From Uloborus plumipes (lineage: Eukaryota > Arthropoda > Arachnida > Araneae > Uloboridae), in assembly GCA_038373865.1 (NCBI GenBank), contig JAXGGA010000073.1:309844-373843 (forward strand): DNA of 64,000 nt, given 5' to 3'. The translations under genes were made by a program, and so were the position numbers. Below, piece after piece: positions 40,197 to 61,604 of this stretch (positions within the stretch are counted from its first letter, which is position 1; every line of letters begins with the position of its first letter). A model generated the notes under the pieces. That model was not told the DNA's origin. It did no database searches and saw only the letters and a list, made by a program, of their open reading frames with translations.

Positions 40197-43100
40197 GTAT
40201 GTAAATGATTCCAAAATTACAGTGGTATATATTTTATTAATGAACATTTTTTTTTTGTTTTTTTGTAGTTTATGAGATATACTATGCTGGTATGGGATAA
40301 ATTAAAACTGGATGGTATCTCAATGTCATCGTGCAGAAATATTTCATATTAAGACAACTAATATCTGAGAAGCGTAAAAGCATCATAAAAATTTCATGTA
40401 TTGCTTCATTAATGTGAAGATAAAACTGCAAAAAAGAACTATGTAAGAGGAATCTTCATGTACGAATCCTAGTTCTCCGAACTCGAAGCAGAATCACTTC
40501 GAAATGAAAGAAACACGTGCATAAAAATTCCCTCACTACTTTTCCTTTTCCCTTGCTAGACTCATTAGTTAGAGTCGTCTCTCTCAATTAGCATTGTGCT
40601 TAAAGTTTTTTGGGTACGTAGTCGAAAAGTAAGCTGTTCGCTGCAGAACTGCTTACTTTCCGTATTCAACGGAACTTTTGCAACTTTCACACGGATTGTG
40701 ACAGTGATCAAAGTTTGATCGAAAAAATAAATGAATAAATAAGCAAATAAAATGTCTTCGATACACGCGAGATTTTGACCTTCGATACAGGAGGGAGATC
40801 GTGACCTTCGAAACTGGATGGAATCGTGACTCTCGATATAGGGAAAATAATGACTTTGATCGGCGAAATAGTGACTTCATACAGGCAAGATTGTGACTTT
40901 CGACACTAGATGGAAAGTAAAAGTAGGAGATTGTGGCTACGCTACTCATTTTGTCTCGAAGTTCCGCCGCTTGTTTCGTTCTATCCCAAGATAATGTGGG
41001 TATATTTGCACGAGCCACGGAAAAAAAAATCCATGAAATAAGAGCAACTAATGGTTAAGACATTTTGTTTCATTTTTTATATAAATGAACTTTATTCATA
41101 CAGATGTATATTTCACATGACTATGAAATTCGTTTTTTTCACAGTCGATTAATGTTTTATAGGTATGAGTTGAAGATGCAACCGGATCTTGTATTTGGCT
41201 CTATAGGACCAAACAACACGTGGTCGGGGATGATTGGATCAATGCTTGCTAAAGTAATTTTACGCTTATGATGAGCTCTTGAAGCAGATGAACTAATGTT
41301 TTAGTATTTTCGTATTTTATATGCCTAAAATATGTATCTCAAATGGCAAAATTTATAGCACTCGATTAAGTCAATCCCTATATCGGCGTTTTTCTTGTTT
41401 GATTTTCATTAAGAGAAACATGTTTCCAGTTTGGTTACCAGCCACAAAATTAGCTGTCATTACGTGAATTAGCGTTGGGTAACTTCACGCAGCCCTCAAT
41501 TTCTGACTTCTATAAAAGGCTCAGTGCTGCAGTCTCGTAGATAGATAATGAAATAGGTTTTCTACTCAGATTTATTTTATACTTAAAAAAAGTTGGCAAT
41601 ATTGCACTCAATAGTTCTGGAGTTACCGTTTGGAAGCAACTTCTGGAATTAGTTGACAGTCCTCTGTCTGTATTGCATATCCATTTATAGTATTACCGTG
41701 CAATGCCATAAATGATAAAAAATTTGTGATGTTGTCAAGTACTAGGGTTAAGTTTTTAAAACAATTAGAAATTTTATTTTTCTGCTTTAAAGTTGCACTG
41801 CTTTTATTAAAATAGTTTTTCTCATCTTATTTCTACCGCTACTCAATGTTGCTCTAAATGGCAAGAGAACTTTAAACCAGGCTAACACTTCATTCAAGAA
41901 AGATTTAATAGACGACAGGTACCGAAATCGACATACCATTTAGTTTTTCAGCTCTAAACCTATATCTGAGGTTCGATACTAGCAAGTTTAAGCAGGTATA
42001 TAAATTAGAATCTTATATTCTGCCGAAATACACTGCTCGACATTGAAAATGCAACACCAAGAAGGAGTGGTCAGAAATTGATGAAATTTGGTAAGAAGAC
42101 AGAGACAGCATGGAACAATAAGTGATATTTATTTCAAAATAAATAAGCAAAATTTAGAGCGAGGACGGCGTCGGCTCAGTAAGAAGTAGGACCACCGCGA
42201 TGCACGAAGAAACACGTCTAGGCATGGAGTCAATAAGCCTGCGGATGGTGTCCTGAGGGATGGCACTCCATTCCCTTTCAACCATTTGCCACAGTTCGTC
42301 CTCTGAACGAGGCAGTGACAGGCTCTGCAAACGGCGTCCAATCACGTCCCACACATGTTCGATTGGTGACAAGTCAGGAGAGTATGGTGGCCAGGAAAGC
42401 ATCTGTACACCTCGTAGAGTATGTTGGCTGATTCGAGCACTGTGAGGCCGGGCGTTATCCTGTTGAAAAATTGCATTTGGCAGACCCTGAAGGTAGGGGA
42501 TTGCCACCGGCCGCAGTACATTATCTACATATCGTTGGGCCGTCATAGTGCCCCGAATACGAACTAGAAGTGATACGGAATTGTATGCAATAGCGCCCCA
42601 AACCATTATGCCACGTTGTCGCGCTGTGGGGCGTTCCACAGTTACTGCCGGCTTCAATCTTTCTCCACGTCGACGCCACGCACGTATGCGATGACTATCG
42701 CTGGAAAAACAGAAGCGGGATTCATCTGAGAACACTACGGTTTGCCATTATGCCATCCACGTCGCTCTGCTCCAGCACCATTCCAAACGTTGGAGTCTGT
42801 GCTGTGAGGTCAATGGCAGTCTTCTTAGCGGGCGCCGTGATTGCAGGCCACGTGCAACCAGTCGACGGGAAATGGTTCTGGTCGACACAGGAACATCCAG
42901 GGTACCTTGCACGTGCTGCAGAATCGACGTACAAGTGACTTGCGGGTCCGCCACAGCTTGTCGGTGAATCCGTCGATCCAAGCGGTCTGACGTCACTCTG
43001 GCTGCACCTGCACCCCTCAATGTGGCTACATTTCCTCTTTCCAACCATCTCCGACACAGCCGATGCACAGTGCTTGCATCCATGTGGGTATCAGCTGCAA

Positions 43101-46100
43101 TTTGACGTATGAACCAACCTCCCCTTCTCAGTCCGATCACCATACCCCTTGTAAAGTCGTCTATATGCTGGAAGTGTCTTCCTTGAGAACGCCTTGGCAT
43201 TTCCTCCTTTCACACGTATCCTTCGAGACAAAAACCAAATTTCTCCGATAATTAGTCTGGCAGAAAAACCAACATGAACATAGCCCACTTTTCAACTTCA
43301 TTCTCTTATATCTTACTTCACGTGCGTCGGAGAGCTGCGCATTTCATATCATTTGCATAACTCAGTGACGTGCGTCTACGGTAAAATTTGCATGAATTTC
43401 TGACCACTCCTTCTTGGTGTTGCATTTTCAATGTCGAGCAGTGTACATGCCAATTTTGTGCAAAATGTACATATTTGGAAAATTTGTATTTGTTTAGATT
43501 TTTTTTAATGACACTGCTAGAAATGGGACCACAAAACCGACATACGAACAAAAAGCACCCGACGAGTCAGTCAGATATTGCAACAACTCCTTTTATTAAC
43601 TCACAATGACATAAAATTGTTCTTCGATTATCACTTTAATATTTTGGAACCTATATTTGCGTTATGTGAGACTTACAGAGCCTATTATATATCAACAACA
43701 ACGAGATATGAAAATATTTATATAAAAAAACAGAAAACCATCAAAAATAAAATTCTGAAGGTTTAAACAATGAAATATTATAAAGCAAAATCAGTCAAAC
43801 AAAGTTTAATCGTACTGAAAATGTTGCATTTAGTCTAATGCTACGGTAGTTTGCTTATAAGAAATACGCTCAAGTATATCGGTTTACAGACACACTCAGG
43901 TGTGTCGATTTATAAACAACACAAATATATACTCCTGCAATTTTTCTATGGTAATGATTAATTATTAGTAAAAACTGTAGTTATTTGAAAAGTTCAGTAT
44001 TTCAGCAATAAAATAGTATGTTGAAACATTTTTTACCTCTATTTCTGGAACAGTAAGCTCTTGAAGATAGCAGACCAAAACATTCAGCGTGAACAAAAAC
44101 TAATTACATATTTCTGCAATACAATACACACTGACACTTGACTGAAATGACACCCACTGTCCATTGTGTTAATTCCAGCTACTGCATACAATAGAAAAAG
44201 TTCATATTTTCCCCGATAAGGTGGAACACATTTTAGGATAGAAAAACACTGGTATGTCGGCTTTCGTACCGATGTCGGTTTTCGAGCCACTCCTCAAAAA
44301 GATAAACCTAATCTGGCAGCGTCGAATGCTGTAATCAGGATCTGCGTAGCCTCCGCAATGCTGCCAGGTTAGATTTGCCCCAACCATAGTTATTAATTCT
44401 TCTATAGGATAAATATACAATAGTTTGAAATATTGCTCCTTCCCCTTTTCTGACAAAGACAGTATAGGTATCAAAATATGAGTGAGACAGTTGAAAATTA
44501 AATGTAGCTCCAAGTTACCCTGAACATAACAACCATGGCTTTTAAATTATTTACACGAATAAAAAAAGTTTTTTACACATTTCTTGATTTATATTCTTTT
44601 CTGTTGCTTCTTTCTTTTGCAGGAGACTGACATATCAGGACCCTATTTCATCACCACTCAGAGAGCTTCAGTTGTTGACTTCAGTCAGGCATTTTTATTC
44701 TCGGAGCAGGGTATAGTCTCGGGTCTTGTGCCAGCCTCTAAAGATCCCTTAGTTATATTCAAAATATATTCCTTACAGGTTTGTTTTTGAACATTTGGCA
44801 TCAATCTGACATAATAGAGTCGCACCTCTTTAATTCGTTCATGCTTAAAACGAATTACTGCTAAAACGAGCTAATTTTTTTTATCCCTGTCCGATTGCTC
44901 GTTATTTGCTTCCTTAGGAATAAGACAAACTACCGTTAAGATAATTCATTTTTGAGGTCTCTTGAAGTTTGTTTTAACAAGATTCGACTGTTGTATTTAT
45001 AACAGTAAGAGAGACATTTTCGTTCAACATGATGTTCAAAAAGTTACCGGCCATAAGCCATGCAGCACCAAAAATAATACATCACAGCTAGGTCATGACA
45101 TCCTGATATCGCAGTTTCGTCATTATTACGGATTCATCAGTCAGTATTAAGGCTTATGGGAGTAACTTACTGCATATTACTTAAGCTTTTGCCTTCATTT
45201 TTCGAGTTAGCGGACAGTGGTAATTCTAAGATTATCTGCCATTAAAAGCATGGTGGAGCGGACCTTCATTTCTGCCTAAAGTGAAAAAATAATGCCTCAG
45301 TTCCTTTTCTGGGAGGTTAAGAAAAGGTTCTCTGCATTTCCTTAAAGACAGGTCTGGATTTGCTCCAAATTTAGGCCACGAACTTCTTTATCTACTACAG
45401 TCCAACCAATATAGTCATGTAAGAAATATGTTCCACTCCTCTTTTCCTTTGGATTAAGTCATTGGTGCCCAGCCTATCGCCCGCGAGCTGTATGTGATAT
45501 ATATATAGCCTGTTGTTAAGTTCAATGTTATAGCTTGAAAAATATGTACTGAAACCTCTCAAATGAACTGATCATGTTCATTCAGTATTATGAATGGTTA
45601 CTACAAATTTGAAGGTAAATATTCAGAAATTGGCTTCTAAAAAACAGATGGAAATTTTGTGACAATAGAATAAACATTTAGTAATGATAAAAACGATTCT
45701 TGGTATGTACGTTTCTTTCATTAGTTTTGTTTTCCCATGCTATCTAGAAAACAAGTAAATGTATTTTATTTTGTATGTGTTCTGGGCTCGAGAGGTTTGT
45801 TTTAATGTGATATTTTTCCAGTGGGTAAAAGAAGGTTGAGTACCACTGGGTTACCTGTGATTACCGCTTCATTATTCTCCAAAATTTTAAGTATTACCAC
45901 ACTTCATTGGTGTCCAAATTGGGTAAATAATCGACAACATTGGCGCAGTATAGCCTATGATATGAAGTTGCTTGTGACATTAAACCAAATAAAACCAACT
46001 TACCGATTTTAACTACATTGGATATAGTATCACGTAACCAAATAATTTAGTGTGATGCATAATTCCATATTGTTTTCAATAATAAAATTGCTTTCTTGTA

Positions 46101-49100: not shown

Positions 49101-52100
49101 TTAACACATGTTTATTACAAATATTTCAGTCTTCAATTTCGAAAAAATTCCAGATCATAGCCCCGAATCCCAACCACTTCTTATAGTATCATCGAAGACC
49201 ATCTAAAATTGCTTTTTTTGAACTTAATAGTCGAAAAAATGTTTGAGAAGAGTCCCTCAAGGGAGGGGCGATTGCCCCCGTCGCCCCTCCCTCGTATCCA
49301 CCCTTGATATAAGGTAGCATCATAGAGATTATGCAGTCAGTAAAAACTTGTTTGTTCTTCGTAAGTAAAAAATCAGTGTTCTCGCTAATCCTACCTATTT
49401 TAAATTGAAGTGGTCAGTTTCCGACTCAAGGGCACGCGCCATCTCTCCGTGGTCAAGCTTTGCATGGACTATAGCTTAAAGTGTAGATATTTTTCTCGTA
49501 GTGGATGAAAACCATCAATTAGTATTCTGATTTTGCATTATTCAATGTATGAAGTTATTTCAAAAAAAAAAACAGTTTGAATAAAATAACAAATCCTCCA
49601 ATACCTTTAGATATCGGAAGCAAGAACGGATGGGTTTTGCGAAATGTTTTTGCAGTCGCCAGCTTCAGAGCTTTGATCGCAATCTGGCTGCTCGGACCTG
49701 TGCTCGTCTTGATGTACACTTACCAAGGGGCCATCACGTCGACTTTTGCATCCAACAGAATGAAACCGCGAATAGAAAATATGATGCAACTCTTCAAAGA
49801 GACCGATGTCGAGTTATGTACTTTGCGAAAGTCCTACCCAGAAGACTGCTTTAAGGTTGGTATTCTAAAATGTCAAACGAAAAGTTGCTTCTTTTAGCAC
49901 TAATCCTTGAAATGTGATGAACGTGTACGTGGTTAATTATAAAGTTAGTTGTTAGTAATGTAAAAAAATTAATTTCAAGCCTGACCTGGTGCCTTGAAGA
50001 GGCATCTTTCAGTGAATTGTTGGCTTTTGGAACCTTTTTAAACAATTTAGATTTTTAAATAATTTAGTTTTTCAAGGATCTTCGGGATTAGAGTAGTCAA
50101 GTTGAAAGTTTTTCTTGTACTTTCCTGTTTGTTTGATGTTTAACCTGTGCTGTTGTTAGCATTCGTACTTTCCTCAAAATGTCTGTTAATACGTGAATCT
50201 TTAATTGGATTTACTTTAGGGCTGGGGGCCACGTGGGCCTATAGGTAGCGTATTCTCCTCGTAAGTAAGTGGTCGAGCTTTCGAGTCCCGCCTTGCCCAT
50301 GGTTGCTATTTCAACCTCTCTGTGCCGTAAATCTGTCCTGTGCTTTTCAGGAGGCAAGGCGCATAGTACGCAGTTCTCATGTATGTCGAAGCTGATGGCA
50401 AGGGCTGTCCATAATTGGCGCAATGCTTTGAAGGGGGAGGGAGTTCGAGAAATTGTGACAAGGAGGAAGGAGGGTAGCACCAAGATGTGCTACATAACGC
50501 ATTTTTTACAAGAATCGCAGGGAATCAGATAGCGCAATGTCAGGTGAGTATTATAAGTGAAGCAGTCAGATTTCCCTCAGTTCTGATTGCTAAAACACTT
50601 TATACTGTACAAAAACTTGAAAATGTAGCTTGTATATAAGATGCCATTTCAAGATATTTTGTTCTAAAAATCATTTTTTTTTTTAAATATCTATCCGCAA
50701 TTTAAAATTTACCACTAGATGGCAAAAAGTTTTTAACAATTGATTTGCTTGAAAAAAGCGACATTACTTTCAGCGGTCCCCCTAATACATCGAATATAAC
50801 TTATACTGAAGCTTTACTAAGGCAGGAATTCAAGTGAAACACGGACGATCGCAACTCACCAATGCAATCGCAAATTTCAAAATTTGGATTTAAGTGAAAC
50901 GAATTCACTTGAATTCGACTTACAGTAGCGGTTGCAATATGCAATCGCCTCGAAGCGACTGCAATGGTGTTTCACTTGAATTCGGCCCTAAGTTCGTTGA
51001 AGATTATATTCGGTTACTTTAAAATAGGCGTATCAAGTTTAGAAATCTTGCCTCGTCTCCATGGAAACCGTACGAAAGAAAACAGCTCCACTCTTTTTTT
51101 TTTTTGATGCACTGCTGTTGATGCATTTCATTTATTTTATGTAAATCGAATTAGGCTTACGCTTTTATTTATATTCTCGTCTCAGTTGTTTCTCAACGTC
51201 CACGACTATTCCAAAAATCTGGCCAAAAGATTCTTTGAAAGAATCCCCACTGCTGGACAGATTTCCGTCCTACGACCCGGCTGATCCAGCTAATCATCGC
51301 CGGCCCCGTGCCTTGTTAAGATAAGAAACGCACGGCACTTTCCGCGGGGGGCTGCCGTTTTGCTAGTAGGGATTTCTCCTGGCTAGGACTAACACCCCCC
51401 ACAACGTTTGCTACTCTCTTTTTTTAAGGGCTCCTTACTTTTTAATTGATTTTTATATATATTTATACTAGATTTTTGATAGATTTCAAAACTTAAAAAC
51501 GCTTGGTTTTCGACCTTGCGGGGGAAAAAAAAAGACTGCACTTCGTACTTTTCACACTTCTTTAAGTATCTTCTTTTAACTATTTTAAGTAATTATGATT
51601 TTCTTCATTTTAAAATTTTTTAAACTTCTGATAAATGCCAACTCACCACTGGTTTACAAGTAAGCTCATGCTCATTTCACCCAAATACAGACCTCCGAGG
51701 CCACGCCCTAGGTACTCGGAAGGTTCGCCGTATTTAGAGATTGCGTTCTATTTCTCAACGTTTTCTAACAGATCTAGTCACACATTAATTCAGCAAAAAT
51801 TTCTAAGAAACTGTTGTACTTCATTGACGTTGATTTTTCAATAGAATAATAGTTTACGCACAAAGCCATTTTAACCGTTTGCATTTAACCATTGTTGCTA
51901 AAGCTAAGTAGGGAAAAAGTCCGTAGCGCCATAACTATGACAACTACTATAAGTGCGGAATTAATTTTACTTTGAGACGCCACAGCTCTCGTTACATGGG
52001 GTATAATTCTTTCCTTTCCAGAAATTGATCGGTACCGAGTACGAGTCGCTGTGGCACCGAGCAAAGAGGAACCTGAAGGCACCCCCGACCGAGACCTACC

Positions 52101-52302
52101 CCCCCTGGCTGGATGAGGTGGAGGATGGGAAATGCGTCTTCGTGGCAGAGACTCTTTTCATGAAGTCCATCGTGGGACAGAGGTTCAAGAAGACCGGGAA
52201 GTGCGCCCTTCGCGTCACGCCCACGGACTTCTGCACTGCTTACATAGCGTTCGCCTTCAGGAGGGATTTTGCTGCTGCGTCGTTTAGAAAGTTTAATCAA
52301 AG
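40093..52302 (+). CDS. Ionotropic receptor gene 2, six exons, 5' exon and last exon not found
   Basis: Tandem paralogue of IR gene 1. Exons: 40093-40196, 41163-41253, 44623-44778, 46109-46253, 49611-49855, 52022-52302. They are 104, 91, 156, 145, 245 and 281 bp (gene 1: 101, 91, 156, 148, 245, 281) with identical intron phases. They join in frame to 340 codons plus 2 bases. S1 contains ISGPYFITTQR with the agonist-type Arg. TM1 is VWLWTIFAIMIATCTAFA. The main channel helix ends VLMYTYQGAITSTF. S2 has CVFVAETLFMKS with the Glu retained. The exon with the last transmembrane helix is absent up to 64000, where only repeats and transposons follow. The gene is therefore either truncated or has a final intron longer than 11 kb. 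Expected role as for gene 1. Confidence 0.82.
40750..40925. repeat. Degenerate ~28-bp tandem repeat
   Basis: Recurring GATTGTGACTTTCGA/GATCGTGACCTTCGA motifs at ~25-30 bp intervals in the first IR gene 2 intron. Strongly diverged, so unit number and length are approximate. Confidence 0.4.
41163..41253 (+). CDS. IR gene 2 exon b (S1)
   Basis: 91 bp. Encodes YELKMQPDLVFGSIG then NTWSGMIGSMLAK. The W-SGM-GS pattern is shared with gene 1. Phase 0 exit at GTAATT. Confidence 0.82.
42031..43443 (-). mobile_element. Tc1-like transposon, copy A (IR gene 2 intron)
   Basis: Ends CACTGCTCGACATTGAAAAT and inverse, a ~49-bp inverted repeat, with TA on each side (42029-42030 and 43444-43445). 1413 bp. Same family as the copy at 60149-61567. 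Transposase on the minus strand is broken. Confidence 0.9.
42154..43200 (-). pseudogene. Tc1-like transposase, copy A, disrupted
   Basis: Starts MPRRSQGRHFQHIDDFTRGM at 43200 with paired helix-turn-helix regions, then the DDE core (MFSDESRF, FQQDNARPH, PDLSPIEHVWD). One in-frame TAA at 42748-42750 replaces a Glu codon found in copy B just before the first catalytic Asp. A 7-base deletion near the C-terminus (about 42193) shifts the last residues relative to copy B. All catalytic blocks are otherwise preserved, so the lesion is recent. Confidence 0.87.
44304..44376. repeat. Short hairpin repeat with AACCTAAT/AGGTTAGA ends, copy 2 (IR gene 2 intron)
   Basis: AAACCTAATCTGGCAGCGTCG pairs with CTGCCAGGTTAGATTT. 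Contains GCGTAGCCTCCGCAATGC, the inverse of the CATTGTGCAGGCTACGC block in the copy at 26891. Confidence 0.6.
44623..44778 (+). CDS. IR gene 2 exon c (end of S1)
   Basis: 156 bp. ETDISGPYFITTQRASVVDF to FKIYSLQ, with acceptor TTTTGCAG and donor CAG|GTTTGT. The VDFS motif is closer to canonical iGluRs than gene 1's VEFG. Confidence 0.87.
45460..45848. mobile_element. hAT-like MITE
   Basis: Left end CATTGGTGCCCAGCCT and right end (reverse complement CAGTGGTACTCAACCT) match at 12 of 16 positions and fit the hAT terminal pattern. The 8-bp flanks GATTAAGT and GGTTACCT agree at 5 of 8. 389 bp, AT-rich, non-coding, and old if correctly identified. Confidence 0.5.
46109..46253 (+). CDS. IR gene 2 exon d (TM1 and pore)
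   Basis: 145 bp. Acceptor ATTTTCAG, donor AAAG|GTAAGC. Hydrophobic VWLWTIFAIMIATCTAFA, a linker, then FFWLFYGTLLGK at the pore. Confidence 0.85.
46427..47851 (-). mobile_element. Decayed Tc1-like transposon with CACTGGCGGAAAAAAA ends (IR gene 2 intron)
   Basis: Inverted ends CACTGGCGGAAAAAAAAAAC and its partner near 47851, followed by shared CCCAACACCAAGAAA. TA on each side (46425-46426, 47852-47853). 1425 bp, a different family from copies A and B. Minus-strand transposase in pieces. Confidence 0.85.
46703..47766 (-). pseudogene. Tc1-like transposase, multiply disrupted
   Basis: Frames switch repeatedly on the minus strand: a helix-turn-helix part (LREGKFSFRDIAERLGVE, near 47500), a middle part (RTTVAHRTASAADIRAAVGT, near 47340), a core fragment around 47140-46940, and VFQQDNARPHIAAVTQ with SPGLSPIGNVWDIIGRHL near 46750. 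In the last block the expected SPDL..IE reads SPGL..IG, so two conserved acidic residues are lost. Clearly dead. Confidence 0.85.
48717..48943. repeat. Inverted repeat (fold-back), ~67-bp arms
   Basis: GAATCGGCGTGTCAAGGTCA... at 48717-48783 is matched in inverse at 48876-48943 (...TGACCTTGACACGCCAATTC) with a ~92-bp loop. Possibly a small MITE. No target duplication could be fixed. Confidence 0.6.
49015..49310. repeat. Segment with direct repeat AAGGGAGGGGCGATTGC
   Basis: The 17-base motif occurs at 49041-49057 and 49258-49274. The outer parts (GGATCCAGA near 49024, CGTATCCACCCTTG near 49292) are loosely inverted, suggesting an old small element. Confidence 0.35.
49611..49855 (+). CDS. IR gene 2 exon e (channel helix and S2 start)
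   Basis: 245 bp. DIGSKNGWVLRNVF, then LIAIWLLGPVLVLMYTYQG and RMKPRIENMMQL. The invariant TYQGAITS block is identical to gene 1. Donor AAG|GTTGGT. Confidence 0.9.
50225..50300 (+). repeat. tRNA-like head of a SINE
   Basis: TAGGTAGCGTATTCTCCTCG followed by AAGTGGTCGAGCTTTCGAGT resembles a degenerate tRNA body. GTGGGCCTATAGG approximates box A with one extra base, and TTCGAGTCCCG approximates box B. The sequence continues into a non-tRNA body to about 50540. Its folding is too poor for a working tRNA. Confidence 0.5.
50405..50520. repeat. GTCCATAA.../GTGACAAGG repeat, related to the 19585 repeat
   Basis: CTGTCCATAATTGGCGCAATG, then GGGGGAGGGAG, TGTGACAAGGAGGAAGG and GTGCTACATAACGCATT occur in the same order as the motifs around 19585 and 25974. 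Forms the body downstream of the tRNA-like head. Confidence 0.45.
50819..50992. mobile_element. Small palindromic MITE with GAATTCAAGTGAAACAC ends
   Basis: GAATTCAAGTGAAACAC near 50827 and its inverse GTGTTTCACTTGAATTC ending near 50983, with an inner AAGTGAAACGAATTCACTTG palindrome around 50893. About 174 bp. No clear target duplication. Lies in IR gene 2 intron 5. Confidence 0.6.
52022..52302 (+). CDS. IR gene 2 exon f (S2)
   Basis: 281 bp. KLIGTEYESLWHRAKRN, CVFVAETLFMKSIVGQRF, GKCALRVTPTDFC, ending FNQR at CAAAG|GTGACA. Third codon positions are G or C in 68 of 93 codons by hand count, against 46 of 93 in the gene 1 exon. Without splicing the next codon is TGA. Confidence 0.88.
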
Positions 52303-52880
52303 GTGACACTATCAATTCAGGAAAAAAAAAAAAGAAAAAACAACAGCTTGCATAACATTGACATCCAGACGGAATTTTGATGCTGAATCTGCGAAAGTTT
52401 GACCAAAAATGATTAGCATTATTATATCATTTTTTTTTTTTTAAAGTTTACATAACATCTGCATTTTGAAGGAATTCTGCTGCTGAATCTTTCCGAAAGT
52501 TTGATCAAAGATGACTGGCATTATTAATTGAAAAAAAAAAAAATCATAGCGTTAGCATGCATGAAGAATTTTACTGATGAATAATTTAAAAAGTTTGACC
52601 AAAGATGATGGGTATTATTAGTTAAAAAAACAGCTTAAATTGCACTCATATGTTAAGGGGGAATTTTGCTGATGAATCTTTTCGAAAATTTAACCAAAGG
52701 TGATTGGCATTAGTAATTAAAACAGAAAAAAACAGCTTACGTAACATTGCCATTTAGGAGAATTTTTTCTGCTGAATCATTTCGAAAGTTTGACCAAATA
52801 TGATTTAAACTTGGGATTTGATTTTTGGAGAAATTGTGCAGCAAAATTCTTTCGAACCTTTGACCAAAAGTTAAGTTGCG
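52263..52880 (+). repeat. Tandem array derived from the 3' end of IR gene 2 exon f and its splice donor
   Basis: The exon end GATTTTGCTGCTGCGTCG...AAGTTTAATCAAAG|GTGA is followed by about six degraded copies of the same block, at roughly 52370, 52470, 52565, 52660, 52755 and 52825. Each has GAATTTTGCTGATGAATC-like then GAAAGTTTGACCAAAG-like sequence, then GATTGGCATTATTA and an A-run. Spacers share AACAGCTTACGTAACATTG-like sequence. Unit length is about 95-110 bp. Only the copy near 52700 keeps the CAAAG|GTGA donor. Confidence 0.85.
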
Positions 52881-52923
52881 ATAACTTATAAAATTATATA
52901 GGGCTAAAAGAAAAAAAAATATT

Positions 52924-52925
<2 letters not shown>

Positions 52926-53010
<85 letters not shown>
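52926..53010. repeat. (TA)n-(CA)n microsatellite
   Basis: A long TA run ending in a short ACACAC run. The Tcb2-like transposon begins at its right edge. It creates a spurious Ile-Tyr repeat frame on the minus strand. Confidence 0.9.
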
Positions 53011-53014
<4 letters not shown>

Positions 53015-53154
53015 AGAGACAAAACATTATGAATACCCCTACATTTTGCAGTGAACTCGCTGGATGACATTTAAGGCATGTGATCAGGTTTAAGTGGTAT
53101 TTAACTGCTGTTTGAGAGTCTGAATAATCATTCTTTCACTTACTACTGTGTGTG

Positions 53155-53779
53155 ATGGGCAAGGCTGCGGATCTAAGCGACTTTGATAGAGGGCAGATTG
53201 TAATGTCTCGAAGGCTCGAAACAAATATTTCCGAAACTGCAAGACTCGTGGGTTGTTCGCGATCTACAGTTGTTAGTACTTATGCAAAGTAGATGAATGA
53301 CGGTGAAACCAGCAGTAGACGACATGGTGTTGGGCGTCCCCACGTAATCACAGAAAAAGGTCGTCGGATACTGTCTCGGTTGGTGAAGCGAAACCGGAGC
53401 CAGACAGTGGCTCAGCTGACAACCCAATACAATGCAGGACCAAGTAGAATAGTATCGGGGCACATTGTTCGGCGGACAATGTTCGATATGGGGCTACGCA
53501 GCAAACGTTACACTAGTGTACCTTTGCTGAGCAAGCGTCATCGCCAACTACGCCTACGCTGGGTCAGGGAACATCGCGACTTGTCCATGGAACAGTAAGA
53601 GAGAGTTGCCTGGTCAGATGAATCACGGTTTACCATTCATCACGCCGACAGTCGTGTCAGAAGAAACCGTCTTTCAAGCCAACAGTTGCTCCCTCAATGT
53701 ACAGTAGGTCATACACAGGCCGGTGGTGGCGGTATTATGCTTTGGGAGACGTTCTTTTGGGCGTCTCTATGACCCGTGG
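53155..53779 (+). pseudogene. Tcb2-like transposase, N-terminal part
   Basis: [20 protein letters not shown] at 53155 opens the paired helix-turn-helix domain, followed by ETSSRRHGVGRPHVITEKG and VAWSDESRFTIHH with the first catalytic Asp. The frame is broken by TAG at 53290-53292 and TAA at 53596-53598, both probably at former Trp codons, and by TGA at 53770-53772. The reading continues across the hAT into 62161. Confidence 0.85.
53772..53779. repeat. hAT target-site duplication, left copy
   Basis: ACCCGTGG, identical to 62161-62168. Confidence 0.88.
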
Positions 53780-53888: not shown

Positions 53889-53928
53889 ATGTATGTATGT
53901 ATGTATGTATGTATGTATATATATATAT
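53889..53928. repeat. (GTAT)n-(TA)n microsatellite inside the hAT
   Basis: Pure GTAT units passing into TATATAT, continued after the Gypsy element at 60142-60148 and after Tc1 copy B at 61568. It served as target for both later insertions. Confidence 0.88.
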
Positions 53929-54544
53929 TGTAACGAGTCCGTAGCACCTTCAACTTTCTTAAATGAGCATTCCAATCTTGAGGAAGTAACTATAAATTTA
54001 TTTACAAGTATGTACACTATTTACAATAAAGCAGGAAACAATTGCTAAACATCCAGCAATTAGATAGCAAAACAGTACACTGTACTCTCAACAGTTACTC
54101 AGCACCACGTATCAAACGTGAACAGTAATTAAGCAATTACAAAAGCAAAAACACATTCGCCCAAAGCGAATAAAAACGAGCCTCTCAATAATCCAATCTG
54201 AGAAAAACTGACTGACTTGTGTTCAAGGCCAGCTATTTATACACGGAAAGAATTCCCGACAACTTTCTAGTAATATCTGGAATATTCCAAATCATTCATA
54301 ACTTTAAACAATTCATTCAAGAAAACGCTAGAAATAAAAAGAAAAACACCACTCCGAGCGAAAATGTCTTCACGCTTATTAAAGTTAGGGCAAGTGTAAA
54401 AACTACAAAGTGTTACGGGGCCGGTATACAAGTGATAAAAGTGATATCTTCAGATACTTTTGCAACATGACGTCAGATAAAACCAAAACTAATAAAAATG
54501 ATGCAAGGCAGGAAAAACAACAACTATTTACAAGATTTGTAACA
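53929..54544 (-). repeat. 3' LTR of the Gypsy element
   Basis: 616 bp. On the minus strand it starts TGTTACAAATC and ends ACTCGTTACA (TG...CA). Same length and no difference noticed from the 5' LTR at 59526-60141. Confidence 0.93.
53997..54002 (-). terminator. Candidate poly(A) signal in the 3' LTR
   Basis: AATAAA on the minus strand, about 235 bp downstream of the LTR TATA-like box, as expected for the end of R. The same motif occurs at 59594-59599 in the 5' LTR. Confidence 0.5.
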
Positions 54545-54558
54545 TTGCCCCCTTCCCT
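54545..54558 (-). other. Polypurine tract
   Basis: Minus-strand AGGGAAGGGGGCAA directly before the 3' LTR, the usual primer for plus-strand DNA synthesis. Confidence 0.8.
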
Positions 54559-54871
54559 AGGACTGCACGTCCCGGGCAGTACAATCCCCAGAAAGGAAGC
54601 AAGGGAAAATTTACAGGTGCACACATTACATGATGACCAATCATAAACATGATAAACAATAACAATGAGAACATGAAAGAAATAATAACATTGATGAAGT
54701 AATATTACAGACAATTAAAGGCAAAAGTTATTTACAAAATTTACAAACAAATTACCATGGTAGCTTTAGATTTACTTTACGAACTATGGCCATAGTATGG
54801 GGCTAGCCGATCATAATGTACAACCCTAGGTTTTGAATGTGATGACTTCTGGATCCTCACTACGACGTCGT

Positions 54872-57800
54872 TCAGCCGGTGAAGGACTGTGTAGGGTCCC
54901 CATCCCAATGTGACTGCAATTTGGGTGACAGACCTTTACGTCGGATGGGATTCCATAGCCACACCTTGTCACCTTCTTGAAAGTCATGGCCAGTGGACCT
55001 TGTGTCGTATCGGGTATTCATTTTCTCCGTCGCGATGTTGATTCGCTCCCGTGCGAAGTGATGAACGTCTTCCAACCGGGCCCGGAGATCCTGGACGTAC
55101 TCCTCAGGCGATGAAGGCGCATCTGGAGGGAGACCGAAGACGAGATCACAAGGTAGCCGAAGCTCTCGGCCGAAGAGCATCTGTGATGGGGAATATCCGG
55201 TGGTCTCGTGGACAGCACTGCGGTAGGCCAGCAGGAACAGAGGAAGTTTCTTGTCCCAATCCTGTTGATTTTTGGAGACCATAAGCGAGAGATTATTAAG
55301 GATTGTCCTGTTGAATCTCTCCACCATGCCGTCCGATTGTGGGTGTAGTGGTGTCGTTCGAGTTTTCTCAATTTTGAGGATTTTACATAGGCCCTTAAAC
55401 ACAGCAGAGATGAAGTTCCTTCCCTGGTCAGAATGGATCTGCAAAGGTGTCCCATATCTCGAGATCCAATGCTGGACTAGAGTCTCTGCCACAGTGGTAG
55501 CTTCTTGATCCGGAATGGAATATGCTTCGGGCCATTTGGTGAAATAGTCAATGGAAACGAGGATGTATTTGTTCCCATCAGTAGTTTTCGGTAGAGGACC
55601 AAGAATGTCGATCCCGATTCGTTCGAAAGGAGCTCCTACGTTGTAAAGATGTAGCTTCCCGCGGCTTCTTCTCTTCGGTCCTTTACGGGCAGCACAGGCG
55701 TCACAAGAATGACACCACTTCTCTACGTCATCCTTCGCCTTGCTCCAGAAGAAGCGCTCTCGAACCTTGTGGAGGGTTTTCAAGATACCAAAGTGTCCTC
55801 CAGTCGGACTACTGTGCAATTCCTTTAGAACGTCTGGAATTCTTGATCTGGGAAGGAGTAACTGCCATTTAAATGCTTTGCCATCGTCAGATTCCCATTT
55901 CCGATACAGGACGCCATTTCGCAACTGGAGAGATTTCCATAGAGCCCAGTATCTTTTCGTTGCAGGACTGTAGATAGAAATGTCTTGCCAACTAGGTCGC
56001 CGACTGTCTTTTTCCATTAACTCCATGATAGGCTTTAGGTCTGGGTCTTCAAGCTGATCTTTTCTTACTTGGTCGTCACTCCATGGATCAGGATCTGAAG
56101 ATGATGAAGTAGCAGTAACTTGACAGGCAGTAGGGATTGTCGTCCCGTACTGTTTCTCAATTCGGGAGCAATAATGGCAGTTCTCGGAACAAGGTCTTCT
56201 TGATAATGCGTCAGCATTCCCGTGTGACATGCCTTTTCGGTGCTTAATCTCGATGTCATATTCCTGGAGCCGCTGTATCCACCTGGCTACCTGGCCCTCT
56301 GGATTCTTGAAATTCAACAGCCAAGTTAAAGAGGCATGATCAGTCCGGAGCAGGAATTTACGGCCGTAGAGGTAATGATGGAAATGTTCTACAGCTTTAA
56401 CTATGGCGAGCAATTCCTTTCTCGTGACACAATAATTTCGCTCCGACTTGGATAAGCATTTGCTCCAGTAGGCGATGACATGCTCGTTACCGTCTATTTC
56501 TTGAGATAAAACAGCTCCAACGCTCTCGTGGCTCGCATCAGTGTCGAGTATGAAGGATTTTCCAGGCTGAGGATAAGAGAGAATAGGCGTTGATGTTAAA
56601 GCCTCCTTCAGCTGTAGAAATGCATCCTCGCATTCTTTGGACCATTCAAATTTCTGTTTGCTCTCCGTCAGCTTATGCAAAGGTCGTGCAGTGTTGGAAA
56701 AATTCTTCACAAACTTCCTGTAGTACGTGCAGAGCCCCAGGAAACTGCGCAGCTGATGGACATTTTCAGGGCGGCTCCAATTCTTGACTGCAGATACCTT
56801 ATCTGGATCTGTTCGTACACCCTCAGAAGAGATAATGTGACCAAGGTAGTTCACCTCACGGCGGAACAAATTACATTTGGACGGGCTTAACTTCAGGTTG
56901 GCTTCCTTAAGCTTTTGAAGCACCTTCCTAAGATTAGCCAAATGTTCCTCAAAACTGCGTCCTATGATGATAATGTCGTCCAAGTAGACAAGACAGGATT
57001 CATAAGACAGTCCTCGTAACACTGATTCCATAAGACGCTCGAACGTGGCTGGTGCATTGCAGAGGCCGAACGGCATCACTTTAAACTGCCACAAGCCTTG
57101 TCCGGTTGTAAACGCCATCTTCTCTCGGTCGTCGGGGTGTATCTCCACCTGCCAGTAGCCGCTCTTTAAATCCAGGGTCGAAAACCACTTGTGTCCGGAA
57201 AGGGTGTCCAGCGTGTCATCGATCCGTGGAAGAGGGTAACTGTCTTTCTTGGTGATGTCATTCAGGCGTCGGTAATCAACACAAAATCTGGTGGAGCCGT
57301 CTTTCTTTCGGACCAAGACGATAGGGGATGCCCAAGGACTGGATGAGGGTTCGATGATGTCATTCTCCTGCATCTCTTTTACGAGGATCTCAACCTCTTC
57401 CTTCTTGGCGAACGGTAGTCGTCTTGGATGCTGCTTGATAGGGAGATGATCTCCAGTGTCGATCCTATGCTGCGTTAAATTCGTGCGACCCACATCCTCG
57501 GATGTAGATGAAAACACCTGCTTGAAGTTGTCCACCAATTTTTCCGCAGCGTATCTTTGATCATTCGATAATGGTGCACTCCCAATTAATTTCGAAGTCA
57601 AGGACTCGGATGACACAGTCTCGGAGGAATCTATTCTTCTGATGATGCAGTTTACGGGAGTACAAGTTGCCAACACTTCTCCTTTCTTAATATTCCTCGG
57701 TCTTTCACTCACATTGGCGACTCTCACAGGAACTGCATTCCTTGAAAGGTCCACAAGCGTAGATGCCACCAGTACTCCCTTTGGGCTATTATTCTGGTTA

Positions 57801-59425
57801 GGATATTCAATTAGGCCGAATTTAAAGCTGTTGTTTTCCTTGATGGAGCCGGGTATTAGTACTTCTGATCTAGAGGGAATCAATGAATCAGTTTGGGCTA
57901 TTATTTGATGAGCAGATTTTAAGTTATTTTCGCTATTGAAAATCACTATGTCTTCCCTCATCGAGTGCAGCTCATTATTTTTAAAGTCAATAGAAAAATC
58001 AAATTTTCTCAAAAAGTCCAGTCCGAGAATGAAGGGATCTGTAATGTCAGCGACGAATGCCGTGTGATGGTAAGTGGCGCTTCCGAACATTATTTCTAAG
58101 TTCACTTTTCCTTCAATCTCGATTTTGTCACCTGTCACAGTTTGAAGAGTAACGCAGGGCGGCGTCCATAAGATCTTGAGTCCAAATTGACGAGCCACAT
58201 CAGTCTTAATAATGGTAACGTTGGCTCCTGTGTCCACAATCATTTCGCAGGGAAACCCATTCACATAAGCGTAAATGAAGAGTCCGTTGCAGCCGCCACT
58301 TCTTGGGGAAATCTGGAAAACTTTGGGAGACTTCTTCTTTTCTTGGCGAGCTTCGCAGTTCTTCCGTACGTGGCCCTCACCGCCACATTTCCAGCACTTC
58401 AGTGGTTGTTTACTTTGGTCCTTGTGAGCCGTAATCTTCTTCAGGGTCCCCGAGAGCTCTTGAATTTGTCGCTTAATTTCCACGAGACAAGTTGAGTTCG
58501 AATCCGGAGCACGCACTTCCACGCCCCTGATTGAATGGCGATCCTTGCGGGACGTTTGCTGTGCAGCCTCGAACTTCATTGCGTAGACCAGACCGGATTT
58601 AAGATCTTTAATGTCCGCCATCCGGAGAGCCGTCTGAATTTCTGGATTTCGCACTCCATCTATGAAGTAGTTCAGGGCCAGGCTATCGCGAACACCCGAA
58701 GGACAGTCCGAGAAGGCGAGATGGGAAAGCCTCTCAACGTCTGCTGCAAAAACTTGTAGAGTCTCTCCAGCCCTCTGGAGTCTGGATTTCAGCTGGAGTT
58801 GGCTGAATTCTTTTTGGCATGCTTCGCCAAAGCGAAGCTCCAAGGCCGATGATAAGGCATCGAAGTCGCGGTGCTTGTCCTCTGGGAAGGTCTGTAGTAT
58901 GTCGGCTGCATCCCCTCTCAGCGAGGCTGCAAGGTGACAGGCTTTCGTGGAAGAGTCCCAGGAGTTTGCTTCTGAAACGATGAGGAACTGCTTCTTGTAA
59001 ATATTCCACGAGGTCTTCCCGTCAAACGTGGCCAGTTTGATGGACGGGCGAGAAGTTCCAGCTGCAGCTACACAGTCACTTGAGTTGTTGGAGGATGCTG
59101 ATAATTTCGATTCAAGTTCTTTAATTTTCTTTTCCACATGATTTTCTACTGTGGTGATTCGATCTTCAACGCTGTCAACTTTCTCTTCTAGAGCCTCCAC
59201 TTTATTTTCCATATTGGTAAATTTACTTTCCACCAAACTTTTCATTGACGTTAGATCGCATTTAATTTCTTCAGCTAGATCCTTTTTTAATTGTTCTTGA
59301 TTAGTAGCCAGAGTCGCCATATCACTCTTAAACTGTTCTTGATTCGCAGCCATGTCATTTTTAACAGCGTTGATCGCATCAAGGAGTTGTTTCAGTTGTT
59401 CATCCATTGCTCGAGTAATTACCAT
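54872..59425 (-). CDS. gag-pol: Gypsy Gag-Pol polyprotein
   Basis: About 1,517 residues from the Met at 59425 (VITRAMDEQLKQ), which is the first Met after the primer-binding site. The frame is open further upstream to 59614, inside the LTR. Order: coiled-coil-rich Gag N-terminus, capsid-like domain (FDGKTSWNIYKKQF), zinc knuckle (CWKCGGEGHVRKNC), protease (IVDTGANVTII), reverse transcriptase (VMPFGLCNAPATF, YLDDIIIIG), RNase H (ILDTDASHESVGAVLS, RTDHASL), integrase zinc region (H..H then CHSCDAC) and DDE core (IGIDILGPLP, SDQGRNF, Glu in GMVERFNRT). Gag and Pol share one frame. Near 54898-54904 the frame slips, so the C-terminal tail of the integrase ends early. The continuing homology lies in another frame to about 54780. 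Confidence 0.92.
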   Translation of the reverse strand: MVITRAMDEQLKQLLDAINAVKNDMAANQEQFKSDMATLATNQEQLKKDLAEEIKCDLTSMKSLVESKFTNMENKVEALEEKVDSVEDRITTVENHVEKKIKELESKLSASSNNSSDCVAAAGTSRPSIKLATFDGKTSWNIYKKQFLIVSEANSWDSSTKACHLAASLRGDAADILQTFPEDKHRDFDALSSALELRFGEACQKEFSQLQLKSRLQRAGETLQVFAADVERLSHLAFSDCPSGVRDSLALNYFIDGVRNPEIQTALRMADIKDLKSGLVYAMKFEAAQQTSRKDRHSIRGVEVRAPDSNSTCLVEIKRQIQELSGTLKKITAHKDQSKQPLKCWKCGGEGHVRKNCEARQEKKKSPKVFQISPRSGGCNGLFIYAYVNGFPCEMIVDTGANVTIIKTDVARQFGLKILWTPPCVTLQTVTGDKIEIEGKVNLEIMFGSATYHHTAFVADITDPFILGLDFLRKFDFSIDFKNNELHSMREDIVIFNSENNLKSAHQIIAQTDSLIPSRSEVLIPGSIKENNSFKFGLIEYPNQNNSPKGVLVASTLVDLSRNAVPVRVANVSERPRNIKKGEVLATCTPVNCIIRRIDSSETVSSESLTSKLIGSAPLSNDQRYAAEKLVDNFKQVFSSTSEDVGRTNLTQHRIDTGDHLPIKQHPRRLPFAKKEEVEILVKEMQENDIIEPSSSPWASPIVLVRKKDGSTRFCVDYRRLNDITKKDSYPLPRIDDTLDTLSGHKWFSTLDLKSGYWQVEIHPDDREKMAFTTGQGLWQFKVMPFGLCNAPATFERLMESVLRGLSYESCLVYLDDIIIIGRSFEEHLANLRKVLQKLKEANLKLSPSKCNLFRREVNYLGHIISSEGVRTDPDKVSAVKNWSRPENVHQLRSFLGLCTYYRKFVKNFSNTARPLHKLTESKQKFEWSKECEDAFLQLKEALTSTPILSYPQPGKSFILDTDASHESVGAVLSQEIDGNEHVIAYWSKCLSKSERNYCVTRKELLAIVKAVEHFHHYLYGRKFLLRTDHASLTWLLNFKNPEGQVARWIQRLQEYDIEIKHRKGMSHGNADALSRRPCSENCHYCSRIEKQYGTTIPTACQVTATSSSSDPDPWSDDQVRKDQLEDPDLKPIMELMEKDSRRPSWQDISIYSPATKRYWALWKSLQLRNGVLYRKWESDDGKAFKWQLLLPRSRIPDVLKELHSSPTGGHFGILKTLHKVRERFFWSKAKDDVEKWCHSCDACAARKGPKRRSRGKLHLYNVGAPFERIGIDILGPLPKTTDGNKYILVSIDYFTKWPEAYSIPDQEATTVAETLVQHWISRYGTPLQIHSDQGRNFISAVFKGLCKILKIEKTRTTPLHPQSDGMVERFNRTILNNLSLMVSKNQQDWDKKLPLFLLAYRSAVHETTGYSPSQMLFGRELRLPCDLVFGLPPDAPSSPEEYVQDLRARLEDVHHFARERINIATEKMNTRYDTRSTGHDFQEGDKVWLWNPIRRKGLSPKLQSHWDGDPTQSFTG

Positions 59426-59503
59426 AAAATTCCGAAGTCGAAAAGTCCGCAGGAAGAAAAGTCCAAGTTCACAAATAATAATTCCAAGAAAGTCCTTGAA
59501 GAT

Positions 59504-59521
59504 GCCCCACGTTGGGCGCCA
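59504..59521 (-). other. Primer-binding site, tRNA-Lys type
   Basis: The minus strand reads TGGCGCCCAACGTGGGGC, the sequence complementary to the 3' end of tRNA-Lys(1,2), located 4 bases inside the 5' LTR. Confidence 0.88.
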
Positions 59522-59525
59522 AAAT

Positions 59526-60141
59526 TGTAACGAGTCCGTAGCACCTTCAACTTTCTTAAATGAGCATTCCAATCTTGAGGAAGTAACTATAAATTTATTT
59601 ACAAGTATGTACACTATTTACAATAAAGCAGGAAACAATTGCTAAACATCCAGCAATTAGATAGCAAAACAGTACACTGTACTCTCAACAGTTACTCAGC
59701 ACCACGTATCAAACGTGAACAGTAATTAAGCAATTACAAAAGCAAAAACACATTCGCCCAAAGCGAATAAAAACGAGCCTCTCAATAATCCAATCTGAGA
59801 AAAACTGACTGACTTGTGTTCAAGGCCAGCTATTTATACACGGAAAGAATTCCCGACAACTTTCTAGTAATATCTGGAATATTCCAAATCATTCATAACT
59901 TTAAACAATTCATTCAAGAAAACGCTAGAAATAAAAAGAAAAACACCACTCCGAGCGAAAATGTCTTCACGCTTATTAAAGTTAGGGCAAGTGTAAAAAC
60001 TACAAAGTGTTACGGGGCCGGTATACAAGTGATAAAAGTGATATCTTCAGATACTTTTGCAACATGACGTCAGATAAAACCAAAACTAATAAAAATGATG
60101 CAAGGCAGGAAAAACAACAACTATTTACAAGATTTGTAACA
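59526..60141 (-). repeat. 5' LTR of the Gypsy element
   Basis: 616 bp, apparently identical to the 3' LTR. Drives minus-strand transcription of gag-pol. Confidence 0.93.
59831..59838 (-). promoter_or_regulatory. TATA-like box in the 5' LTR
   Basis: Minus-strand TATAAATA followed by GCTGGCC. Duplicated in the 3' LTR at 54234-54241. Position within the LTR suits a U3 core promoter. Confidence 0.55.
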
Positions 60142-60148
60142 ATATATA

Positions 60149-61565
60149 CACTGCTCGACATTGAAAATGCAACACCAAGAAGGAGTGGTCAGAAATTCAT
60201 GCAAATTTTACCGTAGACGCACGTCACTGAGTTATGCAAATAATATGAAATGAGCAGCTCTCCGACGCACGTGAAGTAAGATATAAGAGAATGAAGATGA
60301 AAAGTGGGCTATGTTCATGTTGGTTTTTCTGCCAGACTAATTATCGGAGAAATTTGGTTTTTGTCTCGAAGGATACGTGTGATAGGAGGAAATGCCACGC
60401 CGTCCTCAACGAAGACACTTCCAGCATATAGACGACTTTACAAGGGGTATGGTGATCGGACTGAGAAGGGGAGGATGGTCCATACGTCAAATTGCAGCTG
60501 ATACCCACATGGATGCAAGCACTGTGCATCGGCTGTATCGGAGATGGTTGAAAAGAGGAAATGTAGCCACATTGAGGGGTGCAGGTGCAGCCAGAGTGAC
60601 GTCAGACCGCTTGGATCGACGGATTCACCGACAAGCGGTGGCGGACCCGCAAGTCACTTGTACGTCGATTCTGCAGCACGTGCAAGGTACCCTGGATGTT
60701 CCTGTGTCGACCAGAACCATTTCCCGTCGACTGGTTGCACGTGGCCTGCAATCACGGCGCCCGCTAAGAAGACTGCCATTGACCTCACAGCACAGACTCC
60801 AACGTTTGGAATGGTGCCGGACCAGAGCGACGTGGATGACAGAATGGCAAACCGTAGTGTTCTCAGATGAATCCCGCTTCTGTTTGTCCAGCGATAGTCA
60901 TCGCATACGTGTGTGGCGTCGACGTGTAGAAAGATCGAATCCGGCAGTAACTGTGGAACGCCCCACAGCGCGACAACGTGGCATAATGGTTTGGGGCGCT
61001 ATTGCATACAATTCCGTATCACCTCTAGTTCGTATTCGGGGCACTATGACGGCCCAACAATATGTAGATAATGTACTGCGGCCGGTGGCAATCCCCTACC
61101 TTCAGGGTCTACCAAATGCAATTTTTCAACAGGATAACGCCCGGCCTCACAGTGCTCGAATCAGCCAACATGCTCTACGAGGTGTACAGATGCTTTCCTG
61201 GCCACCATACTCTCCTGACTTGTCACCAATCGAGCATGTGTGTTACGTGATTGGACGCCGTTTGCAGAACCTGTCACTGCCTCGTTCAGAGGACGAACTG
61301 TGGCAAATGGTTGAAAGGGAATGGAGTGCCATCCCTCAGGACACCATCCGCAGGCTTATTGACTCCATGCCTAGACGTGTTTCTTCGTGCATCGCTGTCC
61401 GCGGTGGTCCTACTTCTTACTGAGCCGACGCCGTCCTCGCTCTAAATTTTGCTTATTTATTTTGAAATAAATATCACTTATTGTTCCATGCTGTCTCTGT
61501 CTTCTTACCAAATTTCATCAATTTCTGACCACTCCTTCTTGGTGTTGCATTTTCAATGTCGAGCA

Positions 61566-61567
<2 letters not shown>
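60149..61567 (+). mobile_element. Tc1-like transposon, copy B, complete
   Basis: Starts CACTGCTCGACATTGAAAAT after TA (60147-60148) and ends with the inverse ...ATTTTCAATGTCGAGCAGT before a TA run. About 49-bp inverted repeats. The same family as copy A (42031-43443), in the opposite orientation. Lies in the TA tract of the hAT, 7 bp from the Gypsy LTR. Confidence 0.92.
60392..61423 (+). CDS. Tc1-like transposase, copy B, intact
   Basis: 343 residues, uninterrupted. Starts MPRRPQRRHFQHIDDFTRGM. Paired helix-turn-helix DNA-binding region (residues ~15-110, with SIRQIAADTHMDASTVHRL and a GRPR-hook-like basic stretch LQSRRPLRRL), then the catalytic core: Asp in VFSDESRF, Asp in FQQDNARPH and Glu in PDLSPIEH. 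I count 32 residues between the second Asp and the Glu, two fewer than in canonical Tc1. The motif after the Glu reads IEHVCY where copy A and most relatives have IEHVWD, caused by a two-base difference. So the protein is full-length but may be impaired. Confidence 0.9.
   Translation: MPRRPQRRHFQHIDDFTRGMVIGLRRGGWSIRQIAADTHMDASTVHRLYRRWLKRGNVATLRGAGAARVTSDRLDRRIHRQAVADPQVTCTSILQHVQGTLDVPVSTRTISRRLVARGLQSRRPLRRLPLTSQHRLQRLEWCRTRATWMTEWQTVVFSDESRFCLSSDSHRIRVWRRRVERSNPAVTVERPTARQRGIMVWGAIAYNSVSPLVRIRGTMTAQQYVDNVLRPVAIPYLQGLPNAIFQQDNARPHSARISQHALRGVQMLSWPPYSPDLSPIEHVCYVIGRRLQNLSLPRSEDELWQMVEREWSAIPQDTIRRLIDSMPRRVSSCIAVRGGPTSY

Positions 61568-61604
<37 letters not shown>
61568..61604. repeat. (TA)n microsatellite
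   Basis: TA run at the right edge of Tc1 copy B, the continuation of the hAT's internal microsatellite. Confidence 0.9.

What the first reader, a model, noticed from the sequence alone, without database searches (positions are those of the whole stretch)
52263..52880. The 3' end of an IR exon, with its splice donor, has been turned into a tandem intronic array
Directly after the IR gene 2 exon f donor, the exon's last ~40 bp plus ~60 bp of intron recur about six times in decayed form. One copy near 52700 still has the CAAAG|GTGA donor. This shows a coding exon edge seeding a minisatellite and creating decoy 5' splice sites. Failure to use the true donor gives an immediate TGA, so the array could influence how much functional receptor is made.
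Basis: seen in the sequence. Interest (0 to 1): 0.75.

Follow-up and report, generated by a model that had tools for sequence, protein, structure and literature searches.

The report
Exon edge copied into intron array
In a spider chemoreceptor gene the end of one coding exon, with its splice site, was copied in tandem into the next intron and has since decayed; the copies keep an older version of the exon and one still carries a good-looking splice site, but an effect on the gene is untested.

Summary
A profile built from five intronic units, exon left out, finds the end of exon f at E=5e-14; outside exon and array the next hit in the window is E=0.15. The shared exon part is the last 64 bp (52239-52302), plus 20-40 bp of intron. 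Six decayed copies follow. None of 11 other exon ends tested shows this. The array matches only itself in the genome, in a search of limited sensitivity.

The exon is the source: seven spider homologs hold it as coding sequence. The array consensus, read in the exon's frame, keeps the Uloborus diversus residue at three of the four places where this exon end differs from U. diversus, so it looks like a fossil of an older exon. Unit changes are even over codon positions and the tree is unresolved, as in a neutral relic.

'Decoy donors' holds for one unit: 52700 pairs with U1 about as well as the true donor; four of six units lost the GT, and u6's pairs poorly. A last exon of matching phase lies on another contig. 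No RNA was available, so a splicing effect is unshown. Precedents exist (human IFI6; boundary repeats in human duplicated genes).

The parts
52022..52302 (+). Exon f of IR gene 2 (94 codons, last one split AG|G)
   Evidence: 51.6% identical to the matching exon of gene 1; 87 of 94 residues as in U. diversus P0001
52239..52302 (+). Part of the exon that recurs in the array (seed)
   Evidence: profile from u1-u5 hits 52238-52312, E=5e-14
52303..52308 (+). True donor GTGACA; read-through stop TGA at 52304-52306
   Evidence: 7 pairs to U1, duplex -6.6 kcal/mol; frame
52345..52425 (+). Unit u1 (donor GT now AT, 2-bp deletion)
   Evidence: in the training set of the profile
52446..52529 (+). Unit u2 (donor GT now AT)
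   Evidence: in the training set
52544..52623 (+). Unit u3 (donor GT now AT)
   Evidence: in the training set
52632..52718 (+). Unit u4; keeps the donor CAAAG|GTGATTGG at 52700
   Evidence: 8 pairs to U1, duplex -6.7 kcal/mol
52734..52816 (+). Unit u5 (donor GT now AT); reads through the exon part in the exon's frame
52823..52871 (+). Unit u6, truncated and most decayed; GT kept but poor
   Evidence: held out of the profile, E=5.1e-5; 5 pairs to U1

Best explanation
The last 64 bp of exon f of a spider ionotropic-receptor gene, with its donor and the A-rich start of the intron, was amplified in tandem into the intron, leaving six copies. Since then the copies have decayed without visible constraint while the exon went on evolving as protein, so the array is a fossil of an earlier exon end. 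It leaves one good-looking spare donor (52700) beside a middling true donor. SHOWN: the homology, the direction exon to array, no second locus found, the older coding state in the copies at three of four diagnostic residues, loss of GT in four of six. INFERRED: amplification by replication slippage or unequal exchange at the A-rich joints; neutrality. NOT SHOWN: use of the spare donor; if used, the transcript would carry an early stop and should go to nonsense-mediated decay (general knowledge).
For: Held-out profile hit on the exon, E=5e-14, nothing comparable elsewhere in the window. Scores far above 300 shuffles and 11 other exon ends. Exon end coding in seven spider homologs. Array consensus AYITLAFRRNFAAESFRKFDQR; N, E and D, each in 5 of 6 units, agree with U. 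diversus against the window exon. Unit changes by codon position 21, 23, 27 (p=0.67); in-frame stops in u2, u3, u4 and 2-bp indels in u1, u4. One match in the genome for the 642-bp stretch and for one unit. No array in the loci around the other exon-f-like matches (L003-L006) or gene 1's last exon (L009).
Against: At one diagnostic residue (D) the window exon's N is also seen in gene 1 and P0002-P0005, so N may be ancestral there; P0006 has D. At the fourth diagnostic residue (S) the array agrees with the window exon. Exon against consensus leans to third positions (4, 1, 7) but not significantly. The unit tree has no split above 45%. The genome search missed neighbouring units, so it would also miss diverged copies elsewhere.
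Confidence: 0.85

Rival explanations
1. The array is functional: the u4 donor, or the array as a whole, competes for U1 and lowers or tunes correct splicing of the receptor.
For: u4 pairs with U1 as well as the true donor (8 against 7 pairs, -6.7 against -6.6; fixed register -5.6 against -2.5), and six of the 11 other donors of the two genes form stronger duplexes than either. The gene appears intact, with a last exon of matching phase, so there is something to tune.
Against: Four of six units lost the GT and u6's is poor. Units decay evenly over codon positions. No unusual RNA fold: z +1.16, 18 of 20 shuffles fold at least as well. No RNA data at all.
Confidence: 0.12
2. The lost donors show selection against decoys: copies survive only if the GT is destroyed.
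For: The same base (G to A at +1) is changed in 4 of 6 units.
Against: A single early loss cannot be rejected: forcing u1, u2, u3 and u5 together costs 1.3 log-likelihood units without that column. Other G columns are changed as often or more. The best decoy, u4, survives.
Confidence: 0.08
3. The units are a dispersed repeat or retroposed element that happened to land at, or to contribute, the exon end.
For: Units are joined by A- or T-rich tracts.
Against: The exon end is alignable coding sequence in gene 1 and in spiders of other families. One match in the genome, none elsewhere in the window. No Rfam family at the gathering score in 51900-53000.
Confidence: 0.03

Closest known systems
Human IFI6 (6-16, G1P3) minisatellite that provides multiple splice donors (Turri et al. 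1995; original not held; seen as one sentence in PMC4526556 and as reference-list entries)
   Same: Tandem units that each carry a splice donor, next to the true exon end.
   Different: There downstream units are stated to be used as donors, giving several mRNAs. Here only u4 keeps a good donor, the unit is about 100 bp, and no use is shown.
Internal tandem repeats at exon-intron boundaries in human segmental duplications (PMC2812944, passages)
   Same: Minisatellite growth across an exon edge that can alter splicing.
   Different: Those are young, often variable and with transcript support; this one is old, decayed and without RNA evidence.
Tandem duplication across an intron-exon boundary in a potato RdRp gene (PMC4974935, abstract)
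   Same: A tandem copy that spans an exon-intron boundary and carries splice signals.
   Different: One duplication that made a new intron at an acceptor-side boundary; here several copies at the donor side, inside the old intron, with no new intron known.
CeRep25B intronic minisatellite in C. elegans (PMC4039745, abstract)
   Same: A minisatellite near splicing decisions.
   Different: A repeat present near many genes, linked by motif statistics; not derived from the neighbouring exon.

Membership tests
Exon-edge (donor-spanning) minisatellite | Tandem units homologous to the end of the adjacent exon and the start of its intron | tested here: met
   held-out profile hit 52238-52312, E=5e-14; shuffles and 11 control exon ends
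Exon-edge (donor-spanning) minisatellite | Units carry the splice donor | tested here: inconclusive
   GT kept in 2 of 6 units, good U1 pairing in 1 of 6; ancestral presence inferred from the exon
Exon-edge (donor-spanning) minisatellite | Unit donors are used in mRNA | not testable with these tools
Exon-edge (donor-spanning) minisatellite | Unit number varies between individuals | not testable with these tools
   one assembly only
Dispersed repeat or transposable element | Copies at many loci | tested here: not met
   one match in 1.42 Gb, at limited sensitivity; none elsewhere in the window
Ionotropic receptor (host gene) | Ligand-gated ion channel domain and orthologs named as such | tested here: met
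   Lig_chan on exon e of both genes at E=7.1e-5 and 8e-4, below the curated cut-off on single exons; homologs carry PF00060 in the database's own annotation, 5 of 5

The most novel reading that the evidence does not exclude
The array predates the split from U. diversus and works both as an archive of the ancestral exon and as a decoy-donor switch: the u4 donor draws a share of transcripts into nonsense-mediated decay and so sets the receptor's level.
Probability: 0.08. Interest if true: 0.7.

Novelty: new member of a known kind. Interest (0 to 1): 0.4.

Why it matters
It is a clear case in a spider of a coding exon edge seeding an intronic minisatellite. Because the copies left protein selection, they record an earlier coding state that a related species' protein independently supports. 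That gives an internal outgroup for reading recent amino-acid change in a chemoreceptor, and a natural test of how decayed donor copies beside a true donor affect splicing.

Tried and rejected
Tandem Repeats Finder gave no array. The RNA fold of exon end plus array is no more stable than shuffles (z +1.16; 18 of 20 shuffles at least as stable). No Rfam family at gathering score in 51900-53000. Parallel selective loss of donors cannot be told from one early loss. Faster protein change in the exon end: 4 of the last 22 residues differ from U. diversus against 3 of the other 72, p=0.0497; a first test wrongly counted a residue before the exon (4 of 73, p=0.08). This is borderline, chosen after seeing the data, and I put no weight on it. 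Codon-position contrast between exon and units: not significant. Unit tree unresolved. Literature: nine searches; I looked only at the listed results and found no report of this array; two of them returned nothing. The library holds open-licence papers only.

Full report
What was checked. The finding says that the end of an ionotropic-receptor (IR) exon, with its donor, recurs in the intron after it. I read 51800-53200 and found six copies after the exon, at spacings of 94-102 bp with a last step of 70. A profile built from units u1-u5 only, exon and u6 left out, finds the exon end 52238-52312 with E=5e-14 and u6 with E=5.1e-5. The next hit in the 64-kb window is E=0.15, and the reversed window gives at best E=1.9. 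Aligning the last 64 exon bases to the following 578 bp gives 62, 60, 58, 54, 47 and 24. The best score of 300 dinucleotide shuffles was 30, and 20 of 300 reached 24, so u6 is supported by the profile only. The 11 other exon ends of the two IR genes gave best scores of 15-22.

Gene and species. Exons of two IR genes in a row are recognisable by mutual similarity. Exon e of each matches Lig_chan weakly, below the curated cut-off on single exons. Gene 2 as joined exons finds five spider proteins: Uloborus diversus (P0001), Stegodyphus, Caerostris, Trichonephila and Nephila. Later searches added two from Caerostris and one from Argiope. P0001 begins with a stretch that matches gene 1's last exon (89% over 66 residues), so the same gene order probably exists there and that model is probably a fusion. 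In the window's own assembly (1.42 Gb, 25,906 contigs, unnamed) exon f gives five matches: itself, gene 1 at 52% and three at 28-30%. P0001 is therefore most likely an ortholog from another species, with the caution that the assembly may be incomplete. Uloborus plumipes (1.46 Gb, 31,189 contigs in PMC11646306, one section and passages seen) is a candidate for the window's species; this is not proven.

Is the gene intact? The last exon is not in the window, and the contig ends with the window. A last exon 90% identical to P0001's lies on another contig, 3.7 kb from that contig's end, with an acceptor CAG and a first base that completes the AG|G arginine codon of exon f. If the two contigs are neighbours, which is inferred, the last intron is at least 15 kb. 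In gene 1 the same intron is about 1.6 kb. The two contig ends do not share sequence that would prove the join.

Direction. All seven homologs compared (P0001-P0007; P0008 was not) match the exon to its end or its last full codon, and gene 1 aligns there too. So the exon is old and the array derived from it. The 642-bp stretch and one unit alone each match one place in the genome. That search is not sensitive: the single unit did not find its own neighbours. The unit profile also finds nothing at E of 0.1 or less in the loci around the other exon-f-like matches, gene 1's last exon or the last exon of gene 2.

A fossil of the exon. In the exon's reading frame the majority of the six units reads AYITLAFRRNFAAESFRKFDQR. 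The window exon reads AYIAFAFRRDFAAASFRKFNQR and U. diversus AYIAFAFRRNFAAETFRKFDQR. Exon and U. diversus differ at four of these 22 residues. The array agrees with U. diversus at three (N, E, D; each in 5 of 6 units) and with the window exon at one (S; 3 of 6). The simplest reading is that the copies were made before the window lineage changed those three residues. Against it at one site: gene 1 and P0002-P0005 have N where the array has D, so N could be ancestral there, though P0006 has D. At two more residues (A/T and F/L) the consensus differs from both proteins; u3 and u4 keep A at the first and u6 keeps F at the second, so these are likely changes within the array.

Decay. Differences of the units from their consensus fall evenly over codon positions (21, 23, 27; p=0.67). 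Exon against consensus gives 4, 1 and 7, a lean to third positions that is not significant (p=0.17 and 0.22). u1 and u4 carry 2-bp indels, and u2, u3 and u4 have in-frame stops. The tree has no split above 45%. Distances from consensus are 0.10-0.39 substitutions per site. This fits an old array without constraint. It does not prove the absence of function.

Decoys. By pairing with the 5' end of U1 (recalled sequence), the true donor has 7 pairs (-6.6 kcal/mol) and the u4 donor at 52700 has 8 (-6.7); in fixed register u4 is better (-5.6 against -2.5). u6 keeps GT but pairs poorly, and u1, u2, u3 and u5 have AT. Six of the 11 other donors in the two genes form stronger duplexes than either, so the true donor is middling. 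There is thus one plausible decoy, 397 bp past the true site. Its use would retain the TGA at 52304 far upstream of the next junction, which by general knowledge predicts nonsense-mediated decay. Nothing here shows that it is used. Whether donor loss was selected cannot be told: forcing the four GT-less units together costs 1.3 log-likelihood units.

Known kinds. Repeats that span an exon end and its donor are known: the IFI6 minisatellite (one sentence and reference entries; original not held), boundary repeats in human segmental duplications (PMC2812944, passages) and a boundary duplication in potato (PMC4974935, abstract). This is a decayed member in a spider receptor gene. The most useful part is the archived older exon, supported by a second species.

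Assembly caution. If the assembly is the CLR long-read one described for U. plumipes, lengths of the A and T tracts between units may be unreliable. The unit sequences themselves would not be created by such errors.

Noticed in passing
53927-60141: An LTR retrotransposon in the last intron of gene 2, on the minus strand, with two 618-bp LTRs that are 100% identical and an open frame of 1581 codons: a very recent insertion into a receptor gene.
   Followed up: partly
60147-61571 and 42028-43445: Two copies of a DNA transposon, 97.3% identical, in opposite orientation, in two introns of gene 2; the copy at 60147 has a 345-codon open frame, the other is split into two.
   Followed up: partly
63170-63997: A tandem repeat with a period of about 168 bp (about 89% alike) at the very end of the contig, probably what broke the assembly inside gene 2's last intron.
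   Followed up: partly
52926-53002: A perfect 77-bp AT microsatellite shortly after the array.
   Followed up: no
52430-52446: The joint between u1 and u2 is a run of T where the other joints between units are runs of A; a plain substitution cannot explain this.
   Followed up: no
protein P0001 (Uloborus diversus) against window 32067-32264: The public U. diversus gene model starts with what is gene 1's last exon in the window, so it is probably two receptor genes run together.
   Followed up: partly
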